This document shows positions 2,588 through 20,688 of a stretch of 28,368 nt of DNA, piece after piece. Positions within the stretch are counted from its first letter, which is position 1. Each line of letters opens with the position of its first letter. The DNA comes from a virus: the IMG/VR virus record IMGVR_UViG_3300031645_000009, positions 1-28,368 of that record. The stretch is one strand, 5' to 3'. The position numbers and the translations under genes are program-made. The notes under the pieces are model-generated. The model did not search any database, was not told where the DNA came from, and saw only the letters and a list, made by a program, of their open reading frames with translations.

Positions 2588-4971
2588 TATATACCCCTTC
2601 TTTGTAGCTCTTTAACATTAGGGTTATATAAATCCCTCGCTAATCTTTCCAAGTCTTGGGATCTTGGAGGATATAAACTATTTATATTTATTACAGTTTG
2701 ACCACCTCCCGACTTGCTCGCTATTCTTGCAGCTAGTTCATCAATCAATGGAGATCCCTTTGCGCCCATTCCTAGAAGTACGTCTCCTTTGTCTTCACCT
2801 GCTATTATAGAAGTTGCTCCCGTTACAGTTCCACCTTTTGCAAACGCTGGTTTTGGTGGTGGGTTCGTAGAGTTAACGACTGCAACCTGAGCTAGTCCAC
2901 CTGCGACAACTGTTGCCGCTGCTACTGCTCCAAATATTCCCGTTTGCGCCCACGCCTTTGACGCTCCTATTGCCGTGTTAATTGCTATGGTTACTAATGA
3001 TAATTGTTTATTAGCCTCGAATTGATCCTTTTCAATCTTCCATATATCTAAAGCTGCTTGCTTTTCAATCTCTAGTTTTTTGGCGTTGTTCTCATCTCGT
3101 GCCGTTACTGCTTCACCTTCTAAAGTTCGAGTGTTGTCTGCAATATCTAAATCTCTTTGTAGCTCGTTGGCAGTTTGAATAGAGTCTTCATCTCCCATTA
3201 ATATGAGATCTGATATTCTCTTTTCAGTTTCACCCGTTTCTCTTTCAAGTTTCTCTTCTGCTATTAGTTTTTTATAGTCTGATAACGCTGTATCTTGTTC
3301 TGTTTCTAAATCTAAAAGTCTAGTCTTTTCATTTGCGACTCTATTTAATTCTTCTATCTCTAGTGATGCACTATTGCTTGATATCTGAGACAACGCGTCC
3401 GCTATTTCAAGAGCTGCATCAACGACGGAAAAAGCCACCTCTTTCTTTTGTTCTGCTAACTCTTTGGCTATCTCTGCTCTTTCTTTGGCACTCTCAGTTT
3501 CACCAGCTAATATCTTTTCATTTCTTGCATCGTTATCAAACTCAGCCTGTAAGTTTGCCTCTTGTCTTGCCACTCTTTCTTCATCTAAAACGGTAATTTT
3601 CTCTTGCTGTAAGAGTCTAATAGCTTCGGCTTGCTTCGCTTTTGACTCTTCGTCTAACCCATCAAAATTATTAAGCTGTGCTATCTCATCATCTATTATT
3701 TCTATTTTGCTTTTGCTTGCTCTTATTATATCGTCTATAGCGGATACATTTTTTTTATATAGCTGTTCTTCTGCTGTTTGCTGTTGTTCTCTGGCTTGTG
3801 CATTTTCTTTGTCAATTACTGCCTGACTTGATTTTTTATCGGCAAGATCAACTTCTGATTGTATTTCTGCCTTTGTGGCTGTTATAGCTCTTTCGGTATC
3901 ATCTATAGACCTTTGTTTTAACGCTATGCTTTTGCCTAACAAGCTATTAGCCTTCTCTTCTGCCGACACAACTATACCTGCTAGGGCTAACCTCTTATCA
4001 GTCGCTTCTTGACTCAATAGTTGGTTTTTCAATTCTTTAGTCGTCACTTCTAGTTTTGACTCTAAAATAGTCAGTTCCTGCTGTCTCGATGATTCTCCCT
4101 CTTCTAGGGCTTTTTCTGCATCTCTAAGGTTATTGACTTCCCGTATGTAGTCCGCTAATTTCCCCGTTAATTCTCCAAAAATACTTGTCACGCTCGTTGC
4201 AGTTGGTAATAATGATCTACCTAATTCAACCTTTAAATCTGAAACGGCTGCCTCTGCTATTTTGGTTTTATTTGCAAATGAGTCCTGAGATCGTTCAAAA
4301 TCCCCCATAGCGTTCTGTGATTGTGCCATTACTAGGGTTAAGGTCGCCGATGCTTTTGCCTGTTTCTCTGTCGCAAATGTTAGCCCGTTTTCAGTGTCTA
4401 ATAATACCTGAGCTTTTAAATCTGCTTCATTTATTGATATTCCTAACCCTTTAAGCATATCACGTTCACCAAGTAGCGCCTTAGTTAATGCCTCACTTGC
4501 TCCCTCTGCTCCACCTGAGTAATTTGTGAAAGACGCTAAGTCAGCACCAAGGGTTAAAACTTGAGTGGATAAATCTAAAGCTGAATCCTGAGTAAATCCC
4601 AAACCTACGAGTAAGTCACCTGTCCCAGCAAGCATATCTTTGGCTGCCTGTTGTGATAATCCATAACTCCCTGATAATGCGATAGCCATATCGTTGGCAT
4701 CGTCTGACATACTAGAAAATACTACGTTGAACTTATTTTGAGTTTCTTGTGCGTCACTTGCAGCACCTATTGAAGCAACTCCAATATCTTTGATTTTAGA
4801 GGCTAATGCAATTATTGCCCCTGCACCAAGAAGTTTTTTTACTGTACCTGATAAATTTCCTAGACCCGTATTAAACTTTTCAGTCCCCTTCTTAGCCTTA
4901 TCAATTCCATCGTCAAACTTTTTAGTATCTGCATATATTCCTACGAATAATTCACCAATTTTATTAGCCAT
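2587..4971 (-). CDS. Tail tape measure protein
   Basis: 794 aa. The protein sets tail length and is ejected with the DNA. The N-terminus MANKIGELFVGIYADTKKFD with a following GIDKAKKGTEKFNTGL matches TP901-type tape measures, and residues about 65-190 carry the ETQNKFNVVFSS...GLSQQAAKDMLAGTGDLLVGLGF region typical of the family. Residues about 285-660 are a long heptad-like coiled coil rich in K, E, Q and A. Near 670-715 lies a hydrophobic, alanine-rich stretch (IAINTAIGASKAWAQ ... AAATVVAGGLAQVAVV) that could insert into membrane. At the usual 0.15 nm per residue this predicts a tail of about 120 nm. It follows the frameshifted chaperone gene; its ATG overlaps the stop of that gene's frameshift product. 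Confidence 0.95.
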   Translation of the reverse strand: MANKIGELFVGIYADTKKFDDGIDKAKKGTEKFNTGLGNLSGTVKKLLGAGAIIALASKIKDIGVASIGAASDAQETQNKFNVVFSSMSDDANDMAIALSGSYGLSQQAAKDMLAGTGDLLVGLGFTQDSALDLSTQVLTLGADLASFTNYSGGAEGASEALTKALLGERDMLKGLGISINEADLKAQVLLDTENGLTFATEKQAKASATLTLVMAQSQNAMGDFERSQDSFANKTKIAEAAVSDLKVELGRSLLPTATSVTSIFGELTGKLADYIREVNNLRDAEKALEEGESSRQQELTILESKLEVTTKELKNQLLSQEATDKRLALAGIVVSAEEKANSLLGKSIALKQRSIDDTERAITATKAEIQSEVDLADKKSSQAVIDKENAQAREQQQTAEEQLYKKNVSAIDDIIRASKSKIEIIDDEIAQLNNFDGLDEESKAKQAEAIRLLQQEKITVLDEERVARQEANLQAEFDNDARNEKILAGETESAKERAEIAKELAEQKKEVAFSVVDAALEIADALSQISSNSASLEIEELNRVANEKTRLLDLETEQDTALSDYKKLIAEEKLERETGETEKRISDLILMGDEDSIQTANELQRDLDIADNTRTLEGEAVTARDENNAKKLEIEKQAALDIWKIEKDQFEANKQLSLVTIAINTAIGASKAWAQTGIFGAVAAATVVAGGLAQVAVVNSTNPPPKPAFAKGGTVTGATSIIAGEDKGDVLLGMGAKGSPLIDELAARIASKSGGGQTVININSLYPPRSQDLERLARDLYNPNVKELQRRGI

Positions 4972-11737: not shown

Positions 11738-12694
11738 ATGAATGTAGTTAGTTTGTTTGATGGCATGAGATGTGGAAGACCTGCTTTAAAACGTGCAGGG
11801 GTAGTAGTTAATAATTATCATAGTTCTGAAATAGATCCTTATGCAATTAAAATAGGAGATAAGAATTACCCTCAAGACATAAAAAATAAATTGGGTGACG
11901 TTACAAAATGGCGAGAATGGAATCTATCAGATATTGGCTTAATTATTGGTGGTAGTCCTTGTCAGGGGTTTAGTGTTGCTGGAAAACAATTAAATTTCGA
12001 TGATCCTAGAAGCGCCTTGTTTTTTGAGTTTTTAAGTGTGTTAAAACACTACAAGCCGAAATATTTCCTATTAGAAAATGTAGCACGTATGGATGATAAT
12101 GTTAAAAATATAATTTCTGAATTAATAGGCTGGCAACCTATTAAAATAAACAGCAACTTAGTTTCAGCTCAAAATAGAGATAGATTATATTGGACAAATA
12201 TCCCAAATGTTCAACAGCCAGAAGATAAGGGTATTTTCTTGAAAGATATTATGCTTGAAAAAACTAGTGAATATGTAAAAGCTAGTAAAAAGGGAATATA
12301 TAAAAAGTTTCAAAATAAAGCTAGTTGTTTAACTGGAGGCGCTCATAGTGGAGGTAATTATTCCGATATGGATTTATTTGGAATATTAAAAAACAGGTGT
12401 TACCATATTGGGGAGGCTATAGGAATAAATGGACACGAACTATTAACAAGGGTTTATGCTGATTATGGAAAATCACCAACATTAACAACTATTACGGGTG
12501 GTAACCAATATTCTAAAATTGCTATTGATGATTATATTTGGAGAAGATTAACCCCTGTTGAATGCGAAAGGCTTCAAACTATTCCAGATAATTATACCGA
12601 AGGTGTTAGTAATTCACAAAGATATAAGATGTTAGGCAATGGTTGGACTGTTGATGTAATAGCTCACATATTAAGGGGAATAGAATGTATCTAA
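11738..12694 (+). CDS. Orphan C5-cytosine DNA methyltransferase
   Basis: 318 aa, full length. SAM-binding motif I is VVSLFDGMRCGRPALKRAG, the phage-type variant in which FxGxGG is replaced by FDGMxCG. Motif IV is IIGGSPCQGFSVAGK with the catalytic cysteine, motif VI is LLENVARM, motif VIII is QNRDRLYWTN, and motif X is MLGNGWTVDVIAHIL. The target-recognition region is short (about 195-255, containing LTGGAHSGGNYSD). No restriction enzyme gene is adjacent, so protection of phage DNA from host restriction, or epigenetic control, is likely. It is first in a plus-strand operon and overlaps the next gene by ten bases. Its ribosome site TAAGGAGATA is complementary to the putative small RNA at 10675-10765. 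Confidence 0.95.
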   Translation: MNVVSLFDGMRCGRPALKRAGVVVNNYHSSEIDPYAIKIGDKNYPQDIKNKLGDVTKWREWNLSDIGLIIGGSPCQGFSVAGKQLNFDDPRSALFFEFLSVLKHYKPKYFLLENVARMDDNVKNIISELIGWQPIKINSNLVSAQNRDRLYWTNIPNVQQPEDKGIFLKDIMLEKTSEYVKASKKGIYKKFQNKASCLTGGAHSGGNYSDMDLFGILKNRCYHIGEAIGINGHELLTRVYADYGKSPTLTTITGGNQYSKIAIDDYIWRRLTPVECERLQTIPDNYTEGVSNSQRYKMLGNGWTVDVIAHILRGIECI

Positions 12695-15667: not shown

Positions 15668-15696
15668 ATTATACCTTAACAAAGGTTAAGTGTCAA
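15668..15696 (-). promoter_or_regulatory. Perfect consensus promoter of portal operon with CTTAAC-N4-GTTAAG palindrome
   Basis: TTGACA (15696-15691), 17 bp, TATAAT (15673-15668): both hexamers and spacing match consensus exactly. The spacer is almost wholly the perfect palindrome CTTAAC-CTTT-GTTAAG (15690-15675), so a bound factor would block polymerase. The scaffold promoter has the same layout. Confidence 0.9.
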
Positions 15697-15722: not shown

Positions 15723-15765
15723 GTGATTATCACTTGTTTACTATATACATTAGTGTGGTTATCGC
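15723..15765 (+). promoter_or_regulatory. Paired operator-like repeats GTGRTTATCRC before the ART operon
   Basis: GTGATTATCAC (15723-15733) and GTGGTTATCGC (15755-15765) are related near-palindromes whose starts are 32 bp apart, about three helix turns. The second abuts the -10 TATACT (15767-15772) of the plus-strand operon; the -35 (TATACA) is poor. This fits dimer binding by a repressor and looping or cooperativity. Confidence 0.55.
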
Positions 15766-15773
15766 ATATACTT

Positions 15774-15795
15774 AGGTAAGAGTTAAGGAGAGACG
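15774..15795 (+). repeat. 22-nt translation leader repeat, copy 1
   Basis: AGGTAAGAGTTAAGGAG plus AGACG ahead of the first ART-like gene. It recurs at 16128-16149 ahead of the second with a single mismatch. Confidence 0.8.
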
Positions 15796-15797
15796 AG

Positions 15798-16124
15798 ATG
15801 GAAAAAACAACTATTACAGCATACCATTATTCAAGCAAGCCTTTTGACAAGTTTGACATTTCAAAGTGTGACGGGTTTTGGTTTACAGATATAAACCCAG
15901 GTAATACAGAGATGTTAGAAGAAATAGGAGCATCTGATTTAAATTATGTTGCCATTTGTGAACTTGACATAAATGAAACACTAACAAATGGAGATAATTA
16001 TGACGTTGAAGATCAATTAGCTGATACTGAATACGATGCTTTAGAAAATAGTTATGATGGATTCACAGATTATGCATTGATTGACGAGTCAAAAATTGAA
16101 GTTATCGAATGGAAAAAAATCTAA
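15798..16124 (+). CDS. Small ADP-ribosyltransferase-like protein, 108 aa
   Basis: MEKTTITAYHYSSKPFDKFD, then CDGFWFTDINPG, and near the C-terminus ENSYDGFTDYALIDESKIEV. This order, a strand with histidine (H10) then 'S...FDkFD', 'GFwFTd', and a final 'YDGf....vi..skI', is that of the compact ART domains seen in phage polyvalent proteins and related toxins or effectors. These transfer ADP-ribose from NAD to proteins or nucleic acid. The middle is strongly acidic. It is first in a plus-strand accessory operon, preceded by TTAAGGAG and by two operator-like sites. The target is unknown; activity is inferred. Confidence is moderate because ART domains diverge widely. Confidence 0.55.
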   Translation: MEKTTITAYHYSSKPFDKFDISKCDGFWFTDINPGNTEMLEEIGASDLNYVAICELDINETLTNGDNYDVEDQLADTEYDALENSYDGFTDYALIDESKIEVIEWKKI

Positions 16125-16127
16125 AAA

Positions 16128-16149
16128 AGGTAAGAGTTAAGGAGAAACG
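16128..16149 (+). repeat. 22-nt translation leader repeat, copy 2
   Basis: Same as 15774-15795 apart from one base (AGAAACG for AGAGACG), carrying the ribosome site of the AcrIF11-like gene. Confidence 0.8.
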
Positions 16150-16150
16150 G

Positions 16151-16615
16151 ATGAATACAGTTTACCATACAAGCCCAGAAGCAATAACAGAAATTACAAT
16201 GAATGGCTTATTCGACGATTGTTTATTTTTCTCCACTGACATTTATTCCATGGGTGATATTGTTGCAACATATGAAATGGAAGTTGAATGTCTTGAAACT
16301 TCATCTTTCTTTTATCAGGATAATTGTGATGAAATATTAAAAGATGTTGTATCTACAGTAGCAATGTACTTTGATTGTGATAATGATACAGCGATAGACT
16401 TACTTGATGATACTAAAAGAGCATTTTTTTATATGTGTGAAAACGGAAATAATGAAAACGGTGAAGCTGGTGAAGCTGCTTGGTATATCCAAAAAAAACA
16501 AGGTGAAGCTGGGAAATTATTGGGTTATGACGGTGCAATATCGGATGACGAACAAGGAACAGTATATATTATTCCTATGATGGGAAGAGAAAACGATCTA
16601 AAGGAAGTAAAATAA
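16151..16615 (+). CDS. AcrIF11-like ADP-ribosyltransferase (putative anti-CRISPR)
   Basis: 154 aa; the ATG at 16151 is chosen because TTAAGGAG lies ten bases upstream. The N-terminus VYHTSPEAITEITMNGLFDD then CLFFSTDIYSMG, a middle helical part (ILKDVVSTVAMYFDCDNDTA), and the C-terminus EAAWYIQKKQGEAGKLLGYD then GAISDDEQGTVYIIPM correspond block by block to what I remember of AcrIF11-type anti-CRISPRs: 'FHTSP.EIT.I', 'G.F...L.F..D.Y.M', 'W.IQ......A..LG..G....DEQGT.Y.I.M.G'. AcrIF11 is an ART that modifies the type I-F Cascade. The DDEQGT motif (132-137) and the HTS (6-8) are kept. In this host background the target may be another Cascade or unrelated. It is coupled to the PLD-like gene by TAATG. 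Confidence 0.75.
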   Translation: MNTVYHTSPEAITEITMNGLFDDCLFFSTDIYSMGDIVATYEMEVECLETSSFFYQDNCDEILKDVVSTVAMYFDCDNDTAIDLLDDTKRAFFYMCENGNNENGEAGEAAWYIQKKQGEAGKLLGYDGAISDDEQGTVYIIPMMGRENDLKEVK

Positions 16616-17205
16616 TGACAGGAAGTTTATTCAGTTCAGAGGATATAAAAGAAGAAAAGAAAGAGGTTAAATCAAAAGCTCATTCTTTAAAGTCTAAAAA
16701 AAAGAGAGTTGTAGGAAAAGAGAATTCTATTTGTAAAGATGTTATTGGACAACTAGAACAAGATACGGTTTTACAGTTTGTAACAAAAGGCGAATGGTCA
16801 ACACATGATTTATTATTTCATATTTTAAATCAGGTGGGAGCTAGTGAGGTCACTATTGCGACATGGAGTGTATCAAGTCCAGTAGTCGCTCAAATTGCTA
16901 ATTTATTAGAATCTGGAATGATAACAAAGCTTGATGGGCTATTTGATTGGCGCATGAAAGTTAGATGTCCAGAAGCAGAACAGTTTTTAAAGTTTAATTG
17001 CGCAAACATTAGACTTATTAATTGTCATGCTAAAGTTACAGTTATTAAAAATGATAATTGGAATATAACGATAGTTGGAAGTGCAAATCTAACAAATAAC
17101 CCACGTATAGAATCAGGTGTAATTTTTACAGATAAAGAAACAGCTGATTTTAATTTAGAATGGATGAAAGGAGAGTTAAAAAATGGTAAATACTTTACAG
17201 ACTGA
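16615..17205 (+). CDS. PLD-like (HKD) domain protein
   Basis: 196 aa. After a lysine-rich N-terminal tail (about 1-35), residues 60-170 follow the phospholipase D-like fold: ATWSVSSPVVAQIANLLESG, then a single HxK site at H138/K140 (NCHAKVTVIKNDNWNITIVG) and SANLTNNPRIESGVI. The classic HxKxxxxD aspartate is displaced by two residues, and only one half-site is present, so a homodimer would be needed for catalysis. Such phage proteins are usually called PLD-like nucleases. Lipid activity is unlikely. It is translated from an ATG overlapping the upstream stop. Its role in the island, whether DNA processing, counter-defence or otherwise, is unknown. Confidence 0.75.
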   Translation: MTGSLFSSEDIKEEKKEVKSKAHSLKSKKKRVVGKENSICKDVIGQLEQDTVLQFVTKGEWSTHDLLFHILNQVGASEVTIATWSVSSPVVAQIANLLESGMITKLDGLFDWRMKVRCPEAEQFLKFNCANIRLINCHAKVTVIKNDNWNITIVGSANLTNNPRIESGVIFTDKETADFNLEWMKGELKNGKYFTD

Positions 17206-17449
17206 AGTAGAAGAGTTAGCAAGTTTACAATTTTCAAGAGATGAGATTTTAACAATTGTTGGAGAAGATAAAACCCTGGAAGACATCTGGGTTAAAAGAG
17301 GTAGATTGAAAGCTATGGCAGAAGTAAGAAAATCTATCTTTTCACAAGCAAAACAAGGATCTAGCCCAGCCCAAAAAGAATACATGAATATGATTACTAA
17401 TAGAGAAAAACAAGAGAGAAGAGAGAAGGCTAAAAATGACAGCAAGTAA
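17183..17449 (+). CDS. Terminase-small-subunit-like / DNA-binding protein, 88 aa
   Basis: TEVEELASLQFSRDEILTIV, then LEDIWVKRGRLKAMAEVRKS and IFSQAKQGSSPAQKEYMNMI. The 'fsrdEI..i.g......f.rGrlka..evRksif.qA..Gs..Aqk..' pattern occurs in small terminase-like and related phage HTH proteins, in which a helix-turn-helix is followed by a helical stem. A genuine TerS is encoded at 20678-21139, so this is a second protein of the type, perhaps a host-derived or satellite-like relic or a regulator. It overlaps the PLD-like gene by 23 bases; GGAG lies upstream. Confidence 0.6.
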   Translation: MVNTLQTEVEELASLQFSRDEILTIVGEDKTLEDIWVKRGRLKAMAEVRKSIFSQAKQGSSPAQKEYMNMITNREKQERREKAKNDSK

Positions 17450-17594
17450 ATATTGTAAATTACATGGATTAAAGGGCGTGGAAGAGTTAGCAACATACTG
17501 CGAACTTAAACCAAGACGTTTATTTGATTGGTGGAATACTAACAATAAAGCTTTTAAAGTTTTAGTTGATGGGTGGTCGTTGTTAAATAAGTAA
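17436..17594 (+). CDS. Micro-HTH protein, 52 aa, last gene of ART operon
   Basis: MTASKYCKLHGLKGVEELAT then YCELKPRRLFDWWNTNNKAF. The pattern 'Y-C-K-x-x-G ... E-x-A-x-Y ... F-x-x-W ... F-x-x-L-V' is shared with the 55-aa protein at 21914-22081, so two copies of this small helix-turn-helix family exist here. It overlaps the previous gene by 14 bases. Six bases after its stop a strong terminator begins. A last-gene HTH beside an anti-CRISPR-like gene is reminiscent of Aca regulators, and the paired operators at 15723-15765 would be candidate sites; this link is speculation. Confidence 0.6.
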   Translation: MTASKYCKLHGLKGVEELATYCELKPRRLFDWWNTNNKAFKVLVDGWSLLNK

Positions 17595-17599
17595 TCAAC

Positions 17600-17637
17600 A
17601 CCCTCTTTTTATGTAGTATAATACATAAAAAGAGGGT
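17600..17637. terminator. Bidirectional terminator, 16-bp perfect stem
   Basis: ACCCTCTTTTTATGTA (17600-17615) pairs perfectly with 17622-17637 around GTATAA. A-rich and T-rich flanks within the stem give U-runs in both directions. It separates the plus-strand ART operon from the minus-strand Rha operon. Confidence 0.9.
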
Positions 17638-18826: not shown

Positions 18827-19093
18827 ATGAAGATAAGAGATTTAATTTTATTTATAGAGCATAACGATATTGAATGGCATTGGTTTGACACCTTTAAAAA
18901 TAAAAATGTAATTATATTTGTTAATGATTATCAATTAGAAGACTTTAGACATGTATTACATTCTAGTGACTATAACGATGAAGGAATTGAGATTGTATTA
19001 AAAGATAACTATTTCTGTGTTAAAATGGCAGACTTATGCGAGAATAATGATATAGATATTTGTGATGTCTTTGATGTAAACAAGAAAAATTAA
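18827..19093 (+). CDS. Acidic protein of unknown function, 88 aa
   Basis: MKIRDLILFIEHNDIEWHWF then a strand (NVIIFVNDYQLEDFRHVL) and a very acidic C-terminus (LCENNDIDICDVFDVNKKN). It is alone on the plus strand between TerL and the Rha-like gene, with its own promoter, a 100-nt leader and GATAAGGAG ribosome site, and ends at a shared terminator. Small acidic phage proteins often act as DNA mimics or inhibitors, but nothing here proves it. Confidence 0.7.
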   Translation: MKIRDLILFIEHNDIEWHWFDTFKNKNVIIFVNDYQLEDFRHVLHSSDYNDEGIEIVLKDNYFCVKMADLCENNDIDICDVFDVNKKN

Positions 19094-19132: not shown

Positions 19133-20688
19133 TAGATATTATATGACCGTCTACCTGATTTCTTAACCTCTAATTCAGCACGGCATATAATATAAGCGTC
19201 TGCTAAGTTGGGGGATCTTGTTCCTTTTGGCTTCTTATCTATCATCAATCTACCATTAGCACTTAATTTAAATTGTGGCTGTGATAATTCTCTTATTAAC
19301 TTTTCAGATTTGGGTGATACATTTTTATCAATATGGACTAATTGCGTTGAATCAAAGTCTTTTCCATTAACCTTCCTGTATGTATTTCTAAACTCGTCTC
19401 TGGCTTTCCACCATGCCTGAGCTTTAGCGTTCTCAAATAGATCTCCATTGTTTTTATTTTGGTAGTCTTTTGCCTTTGGTCTAATAACTTTACCTGATGC
19501 ACTCCAAGGAATTACCGTGATAGATAATGCTTTCTTGCGTCTTGCTTCTGAGATAGTTTTATCTTTCATCATAGTAACTAAAATCTCTTTAACTCTTACC
19601 TGGACACCAGCACCGACACCGATAGGGTCATATCTGAATTGTTCACAATCCATGTCTACAGCTAACCAGAAATATTTATCTGTTGCGTCTCCCACATCGC
19701 CCTCTGCACTTTCTTCCACATAGGTTACACTATTACCATTCATAGATATAAAGCCATGCGTGTCGCTTCCCTCGTTTGATGGATCTAATGATGCTATCTT
19801 TAAGCCATGCCCTTTTAAATCATTTCTATTAGAAGAGTTCACCCAATCAGATGGACATACCACTGACTCAATACTTGCGCTTGCGTCTCTTTCTACTTCC
19901 TGCTTAAATACATGTAGCGTACCTTCTGCAATAGCTTTTGCTTTCTCTGCATCGTACCACTCTTGAGAATATAACGGTATTTCCCACCAATCAAAGGTAA
20001 AAACTTTATTTATTCCAGATGAACACTTTCTATAAAATAGCGTATTAGTCCCATTATGAGTTGACCCCCATATTTTACAATCACTATTCCTTGAAACACT
20101 TGCCTCAATTGCTTCTGCTCTAGGATAAAAGGCGCACTCATCTAAAAAGAATATAGAAGATCTACCACCACGCCCGGCATTATCTCCCGCTTTACCTGTG
20201 ATTATAGAATTAGTTTCTGAGTTATGGATCTGCATTAATTTAGTCTCGACTTGTTTGGTGAATTGTTCCGGTAGGTAATCAATAACGAATATCATTTTTT
20301 CAAGTAACGTGTCCATATCACCTAATTTATGACACTCATCGGCTTTATATGTGTACATTGATACTGTTACAGAGTCTTGAAATAATAAAAGATATACAGC
20401 AAAGGCAGCATTCAGCCATGAATAACCAACACCTCGGCACTTATCAATAACACCATCTTCTCTTAATGTGTATCTATCCCATAACCAGGCTATATATTCC
20501 TCTTGTTTATCAAACAATTCAAAAGGCATAACCCTATCTTCAAGCTTCCTTGGATCAAATGTAAAACAAAATCTATTAATAAAATCTATTACAGCCTCAG
20601 TACAGCCAAATTGATACATTTCTTTGTATCGTATGATTTCTTCTTTTGAGCTATTTATCTGTAAACGTTCATCCCAATCAATTTTCAT
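19129..20688 (-). CDS. terL: Terminase large subunit
   Basis: 519 aa. It is the packaging motor and nuclease. The ATPase domain has an adenine-binding DKQEEY region (about 60), a deviant Walker A DKCRGVGYSWLNAAF (around 82-96, GxGxSW without the usual GKS/T lysine, as in Mu/P22-type 'sRxxGxSW'), Walker B SIFFLDECAF and coupling motif GSTHNGT. The nuclease domain shows the acidic ASLDPSNEGSD strand, a central acidic motif DPIGVGAGVQV, and a C-terminal RSPNLADAYIICRA. The start overlaps the terS stop (ATGAAAATTGA). Confidence 0.95.
   Translation of the reverse strand: MKIDWDERLQINSSKEEIIRYKEMYQFGCTEAVIDFINRFCFTFDPRKLEDRVMPFELFDKQEEYIAWLWDRYTLREDGVIDKCRGVGYSWLNAAFAVYLLLFQDSVTVSMYTYKADECHKLGDMDTLLEKMIFVIDYLPEQFTKQVETKLMQIHNSETNSIITGKAGDNAGRGGRSSIFFLDECAFYPRAEAIEASVSRNSDCKIWGSTHNGTNTLFYRKCSSGINKVFTFDWWEIPLYSQEWYDAEKAKAIAEGTLHVFKQEVERDASASIESVVCPSDWVNSSNRNDLKGHGLKIASLDPSNEGSDTHGFISMNGNSVTYVEESAEGDVGDATDKYFWLAVDMDCEQFRYDPIGVGAGVQVRVKEILVTMMKDKTISEARRKKALSITVIPWSASGKVIRPKAKDYQNKNNGDLFENAKAQAWWKARDEFRNTYRKVNGKDFDSTQLVHIDKNVSPKSEKLIRELSQPQFKLSANGRLMIDKKPKGTRSPNLADAYIICRAELEVKKSGRRSYNIY

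What the first reader, a model, noticed from the sequence alone, without database searches (positions are those of the whole stretch)
16151..16615. AcrIF11-like ADP-ribosyltransferase in a low-GC siphovirus
The 154-aa protein matches, block by block, the remembered pattern of AcrIF11-type anti-CRISPRs, including an N-terminal HTSP/EIT segment, a W-x-IQ helix and the DDEQGT motif near the catalytic site. AcrIF11 is known from Gram-negative hosts and type I-F systems, which are rare in Bacillota, so the target here may be a different Cascade or another defence complex.
Basis: partly seen in the sequence, partly recalled or inferred. Interest (0 to 1): 0.85.

Follow-up and report, generated by a model that had tools for sequence, protein, structure and literature searches.

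The report
Phage AcrIF11 anti-CRISPR operon, host unknown
This phage gene encodes a divergent member of a known anti-CRISPR enzyme family (AcrIF11) that shuts off bacterial CRISPR immunity by attaching ADP-ribose to it; it sits in a small self-contained operon with a second, uncharacterised enzyme-like protein of related fold and a likely regulator, but the bacterium this phage infects could not be identified.

Summary
Window 16151-16615 (+) encodes a 154-aa AcrIF11-family ADP-ribosyltransferase: NCBIfam NF052490 at 107 bits (cut-off 50), PDB 8dwq E 2.6e-18, and a confident model (pLDDT 94) whose only significant fold matches are the two solved AcrIF11 structures. The four residues needed for activity in AcrIF11Pae2 (H20, Y46, D146, E147) are all present (H6, Y32, D133, E134).

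It is gene 2 of a five-gene + strand transcription unit (15798-17594) lodged among opposite-strand late genes: a 108-aa protein with a PARP/PolyVal-like ART fold, AcrIF11, a NucT/PLD-like nuclease, an 88-aa protein, and a 52-aa HTH-like protein. The last is homologous to the small gene directly downstream of AcrIF11 in other elements, so it is a likely Aca regulator. A 19-bp hairpin follows.

The head and replication genes look Bacillota-like, but AcrIF11, the 108-aa ART, Rha and the large terminase have mainly or only Gram-negative relatives. The simplest target remains type I-F Cas8f/Csy1, not tested.

Verdict: a new, divergent member of a known kind. The most interesting part is the neighbouring uncharacterised ART-fold gene sharing the same leader.

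The parts
15723..15765 (+). Two palindrome-like elements GTGATTATCAC (15723-15733) and GTGGTTATCGC (15755-15765); candidate operator sites of the operon
   Evidence: the only two matches of GTGNTTATCNC in the window. A pair of this quality is not rare by itself (about 3% of 147-nt stretches of the window), so suggestive only.
15744..15772 (+). Sigma-70-like promoter TATACA-17-TATACT of the + strand operon; the second palindrome lies in its spacer
   Evidence: 9 of 12 consensus; weak alone.
15774..15791 (+). Leader/ribosome-binding segment AGGTAAGAGTTAAGGAGA, identical to that at 16128-16145
15798..16124 (+). 108-aa ART-fold protein (PARP/PolyVal-like), uncharacterised; possible second anti-defence enzyme
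   Evidence: Model pLDDT 86.9; the leading PDB matches are nearly all PARP/tankyrase catalytic domains, best E 5e-3, prob 1.00; viral matches include several named ART-PolyVal / PolyVal ADP-ribosyltransferases, best match E 2.8e-5; homologues only in L046 (72%) and L047 (51%).
16128..16145 (+). Second copy of the leader/ribosome-binding segment, before the AcrIF11 gene
16151..16615 (+). AcrIF11-family anti-CRISPR ADP-ribosyltransferase, 154 aa; active-site residues H6, Y32, D133, E134
16615..17205 (+). NucT/PLD-like nuclease (HxK...GSAN motif), 196 aa
   Evidence: PHROG endonuclease family E 1.2e-22; Pfam PLDc_2 E 4e-4, below cut-off; phage NucT-like relatives.
17183..17449 (+). 88-aa protein, partner gene of the NucT-like nuclease; relatives lie between NucT and terminase genes in other phages
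17436..17594 (+). 52-aa HTH-like protein, candidate Aca (anti-CRISPR-associated) autorepressor
   Evidence: Homologous to the gene immediately downstream of AcrIF11 in L033, L028, L034 and L018 (0 of 2000 shuffles reach the scores). No significant library profile hit of its own.
17600..17637 (.). 19-bp inverted repeat with no spacer, likely (bidirectional) terminator closing the operon
   Evidence: pair I2, 95% complementary.

Best explanation
The gene encodes an enzymatic anti-CRISPR of the AcrIF11 family. Inferred from the characterised members: after entry, the phage expresses the operon from its own promoter; the protein binds NAD+ with its ART fold and transfers ADP-ribose to the Cas8 subunit (Cas8f/Csy1, N250 in Pseudomonas aeruginosa) of an assembled type I-F Cascade, which then cannot bind target DNA. 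The 52-aa HTH-like protein at the operon's end probably acts as an Aca repressor on the operon's own promoter. Shown here: family membership, fold, catalytic residues, operon layout, relatedness of the last gene to AcrIF11-linked HTH genes. Inferred: enzymatic activity, target, regulation. The operon behaves as an inserted, independently transcribed cassette: the related virus L002 has TerL and portal adjacent without it.
For: NF052490 107 bits against a cut-off of 50. phmmer to 8dwq E 2.6e-18; profile to 8dwq E 8.8e-34 and 6kyf E 7e-8. Fold match only to 8dwq (E 1.7e-7) and 6kyf (E 2.5e-4); the next match is at E 0.6. The residues whose double mutants abolish activity in AcrIF11Pae2 (H20/Y46, D146/E147; PMC12421852) align with H6, Y32, D133, E134. 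The 52-aa protein is related to HTH genes beside AcrIF11 elsewhere. L002 has TerS-TerL-portal without the cassette and no AcrIF11 anywhere in its 31.8-kb record. AcrIF11 is documented next to several Aca families (PMC9765179), and Aca sites are inverted repeats in the core promoter (PMC9410906). The one AcrIF11-bearing whole genome found also carries csy1.
Against: No host, so no demonstrated type I-F target. The protein is a deep branch, at most about 45% identical to any relative and not placed in a well-supported subgroup, so target drift is possible. Some structural and replication genes look Bacillota-like, where type I-F is not expected (general knowledge). The operator palindromes are not statistically exceptional.
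Confidence: 0.82

Rival explanations
1. An AcrIF11-family ART whose target is a different Cascade (I-B, I-C, I-E) or another defence complex, because the phage infects a bacterium without type I-F.
For: Divergent branch. Bacillota-like portal, capsid, replisome organiser and tail protein. The replisome-organiser family is rare in Gammaproteobacteria, 1 of 369.
Against: AcrIF11 relatives of known origin, the Rha and TerL genes, and one homologue of the adjacent gene point to Gram-negative hosts. Published AcrIF11 modifies Csy1 and nothing else detectable in the cell (PMC12421852).
Confidence: 0.1
2. An ART of the same fold with a non-defence target (host takeover, for example RNA polymerase or ribosome modification as by phage T4 ARTs).
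For: Phages use many ARTs for host takeover (general knowledge); a second ART-fold gene lies next door.
Against: Profile and fold matches are to AcrIF11 specifically, with no other ART family scoring; the HTH partner gene matches other AcrIF11 loci.
Confidence: 0.05
3. Decayed, non-functional remnant of an acquired acr gene.
For: The relative L002 lacks it.
Against: Intact frame with ribosome-binding site; catalytic residues retained; operon with promoter-like site and terminator intact.
Confidence: 0.03

Closest known systems
AcrIF11Pae2 (PDB 8dwq) and AcrIF11Pae1 (PDB 6kyf), Pseudomonas aeruginosa
   Same: Full-length sequence similarity (34% identity in the structural alignment to 8dwq), ART fold with a helical region, all four functionally required residues.
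   Different: Deeply divergent; different mobile-element context; activity and target untested.
AcrIF11 homologues in Vibrio anguillarum phages (VaK, VPBES and relatives)
   Same: Closest named-phage relatives, 41-42% identity over 96-99%, followed by a small gene.
   Different: The following small gene belongs to another family (phrog_18848); none of the window's other cassette genes matched there.
acr-aca operons (Aca1, Aca4-Aca7 with AcrIF11; PMC9765179)
   Same: Acr gene, terminal small HTH-like gene, two promoter palindromes.
   Different: Three further genes share the unit (108-aa ART, NucT-like nuclease, 88-aa protein); the HTH-like protein matches no named Aca profile tested.
ART-PolyVal / PARP-type phage ADP-ribosyltransferases (for the 108-aa neighbour)
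   Same: Predicted fold.
   Different: Minimal size, no sequence-family hit. By motif comparison (inference) it has H10 and D91 where PARPs have H and E, and lacks the usual tyrosine.

Membership tests
AcrIF11 family anti-CRISPR ADP-ribosyltransferase (NF052490) | Score above the curated family cut-off | tested here: met
   107.3 bits, cut-off 50, positions 3-142 of 142.
AcrIF11 family anti-CRISPR ADP-ribosyltransferase (NF052490) | AcrIF11-type ART fold | tested here: met
   Model pLDDT 94.2; best and only significant matches 8dwq and 6kyf.
AcrIF11 family anti-CRISPR ADP-ribosyltransferase (NF052490) | Catalytic/NAD-site residues H, Y, D-E (AcrIF11Pae2 H20, Y46, D146, E147) | tested here: met
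   H6, Y32, D133, E134.
AcrIF11 family anti-CRISPR ADP-ribosyltransferase (NF052490) | ADP-ribosylates Csy1/Cas8f and inhibits type I-F CRISPR-Cas | not testable with these tools
   Needs an assay.
AcrIF11 family anti-CRISPR ADP-ribosyltransferase (NF052490) | Carried on a mobile element | tested here: met
   Phage sequence with terminase, portal and capsid genes.
acr-aca operon | Small HTH regulator encoded in the same transcription unit as the acr | tested here: met
   52-aa protein related to HTH proteins beside AcrIF11 in L028, L033, L034, L018. Its own match to HTH profiles is not significant, and co-transcription is inferred from layout.
acr-aca operon | Inverted repeats in the acr promoter bound by the HTH protein | tested here: inconclusive
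   Two palindromes at a promoter-like site; a similar pair occurs in about 3% of stretches; binding not testable.
Known Aca families | Match to a named Aca profile | tested here: inconclusive
   No NCBIfam hit; I did not check that all Aca families have models in that library.

The most novel reading that the evidence does not exclude
The operon is a two-ART anti-defence cassette: AcrIF11 plus a hitherto undescribed minimal PARP/PolyVal-like ART (108 aa), sharing an identical leader and one promoter, the second enzyme ADP-ribosylating a different defence component (or AcrIF11 itself acting on a Cascade other than I-F in an unusual host).
Probability: 0.3. Interest if true: 0.65.

Novelty: new member of a known kind. 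Interest (0 to 1): 0.42.

Why it matters
It adds a deep branch to a well-characterised family of enzymatic anti-CRISPRs, useful for asking which parts of AcrIF11 set target choice. Its operon offers a concrete candidate, an uncharacterised 108-aa ART-fold protein, for a new anti-defence enzyme by guilt by association. If the host proved to lack type I-F, it would suggest that AcrIF11 can be retargeted.

Tried and rejected
Host identification failed. A genome-contig scan with the portal alignment gave no relative. Two viral contigs carry related portals (L002 70%, L038 46%) but name no host. Relatives cannot be drawn for a virus record, and no Bacillota genome handle was available for a matched comparison with the 369 Gammaproteobacteria. 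A genome-contig scan for AcrIF11 found one Aliivibrio genome, but with a single short pattern, so absence elsewhere is weak evidence. A viral-contig scan with the window protein alone found nothing; the alignment found 28 loci. The start at 16109 was rejected for lack of a ribosome-binding site. The palindrome pair in the promoter was tested against the rest of the window and is not exceptional. Literature searches for AcrIF11 in Gram-positives and for type I-F in Firmicutes gave no paper; one paper assigns an Oenococcus prophage ORF to AcrIF11 by database prediction only (PMC9867325).

Full report
Observation. The ORF at 16151-16615 (+) is real, 154 aa, with its own ribosome-binding site. It scores 107 bits to NCBIfam NF052490 'AcrIF11 family anti-CRISPR ADP-ribosyltransferase' (cut-off 50), matches PDB 8dwq (AcrIF11Pae2) at E 2.6e-18 and, as a profile, also 6kyf (AcrIF11Pae1) at E 7e-8. 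It has no Pfam hit; in PHROGs it matches phrog_11282, unknown function.

Anatomy of the protein. In an alignment of 23 homologues H6, S8, Y32, Q114, D133, E134, Q135 and G136 are invariant. In AcrIF11Pae2 the double mutants H20A/Y46A and D146A/E147A abolish both Csy1 ADP-ribosylation and phage protection (PMC12421852); these positions align with H6/Y32 and D133/E134. AlphaFold2 on 25 sequences from the window and fetched loci gives pLDDT 94.2, and Foldseek finds only 8dwq (E 1.7e-7) and 6kyf (E 2.5e-4) below 0.001, the next match being at E 0.6. A maximum-likelihood tree places the window on its own long branch inside the family.

Operon. The gene is second of five overlapping or closely spaced + strand genes, 15798-17594. 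The neighbouring phage genes are mostly on the minus strand: portal on one side, Rha and terminase on the other. There is a promoter-like site at 15744-15772 and a 19-bp inverted repeat after the last gene. Genes 1 and 2 share an identical 18-nt leader (a third near-copy occurs on the minus strand inside TerL). In the related virus L002 (portal 70% identical) TerS, TerL and portal are adjacent with no cassette, and the record has no AcrIF11. The cassette therefore looks like an inserted, independently transcribed module.

Neighbours. Gene 1 (108 aa) has no family hit, but the model (pLDDT 86.9, from only three sequences) matches PARP/tankyrase ART domains (best E 5e-3, prob 1.00) and viral ART-PolyVal proteins. 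Its only found relatives are in two viral contigs, L046 and L047; L047 carries RimP- and PgpA-like genes, recognised by eye from the translations, suggesting a proteobacterial prophage. Gene 3 is NucT/PLD-like. Gene 4 (88 aa) is its partner: pairs of NucT and a similar small protein lie directly before the terminase genes in Microcystis phage Mea-Yong924-1 and in gut phages. Gene 5 (52 aa) aligns with the small protein encoded immediately downstream of AcrIF11 in L033, L028, L034 and L018, with scores never reached in 2000 shuffles. Relatives of that protein weakly match Cro/repressor profiles, so it is a candidate Aca. AcrIF11 is known beside Aca1 and Aca4-7 (PMC9765179), and Aca proteins act on inverted repeats in the core promoter (PMC9410906). 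Two palindromes lie at the operon's promoter, but such pairs are not rare in this sequence.

Host. Not determined. Bacillota-like: SPP1-type portal, replisome organiser (family in 1 of 369 Gammaproteobacteria), capsid relative in a Sporosarcina phage, tail protein in a Flavonifractor phage. Gram-negative-like: TerL (935 records, the leading ones Vibrio, Pseudomonas, Klebsiella, Acinetobacter), Rha (best in Vibrio phages, 39.5% over 99%), AcrIF11 (22 Vibrio phages; Vibrio, Alteromonas, Photobacterium and Providencia plasmids; one Aliivibrio genome, which also carries csy1).

Mechanism and conclusion. By homology and retained active site, the protein most likely ADP-ribosylates the Cas8 subunit of a type I-F Cascade and so blocks DNA binding. 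Family membership is shown; activity, target and regulation are inferred. The finding is a new, divergent member of a known kind; the neighbouring ART-fold gene is the part most worth testing.

Noticed in passing
window 16615-17449 (+): NucT/PLD-like nuclease plus 88-aa partner, a pair that in other phages (L042-L044) sits directly upstream of the terminase genes, here embedded in the anti-CRISPR operon on the opposite strand to TerS/TerL; role unknown.
   Followed up: partly
window 15774-15791, 16128-16145, 19584-19601 (-): 18-nt leader AGGTAAGAGTTAAGGAGA repeated exactly before the two ART genes, with a near-copy (1 mismatch) on the minus strand inside TerL; 3 matches against 0.07 expected.
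   Followed up: partly
window 11738-12694 (+): Orphan C5-cytosine DNA methyltransferase on the + strand among minus-strand head genes; possibly a second anti-defence moron.
   Followed up: no
window 15668-15696 (-): Perfect 12/12 sigma-70 promoter (TTGACA-17-TATAAT) just upstream of the portal gene.
   Followed up: no
window 18827-19093 (+): 88-aa, notably acidic orphan protein on the + strand between Rha and TerL, followed by a terminator-like hairpin; no confident family hit.
   Followed up: no
L025 and L026, 4995-5978 (+): AcrIF11-like domain at the start of a 327-aa open frame, i.e. with a C-terminal extension of about 185 aa; a possible AcrIF11 fusion.
   Followed up: no
L028, L033, L034, about 4915-4960: Tandem palindromes (TAAAGTAAAAC-CTTTA type) in the region upstream of AcrIF11 genes that are followed by the related HTH gene; likely Aca operators.
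   Followed up: partly
L038 9393-11036 (+): Mu F-like minor head protein with a C-terminal region that by eye resembles an ART domain.
   Followed up: no
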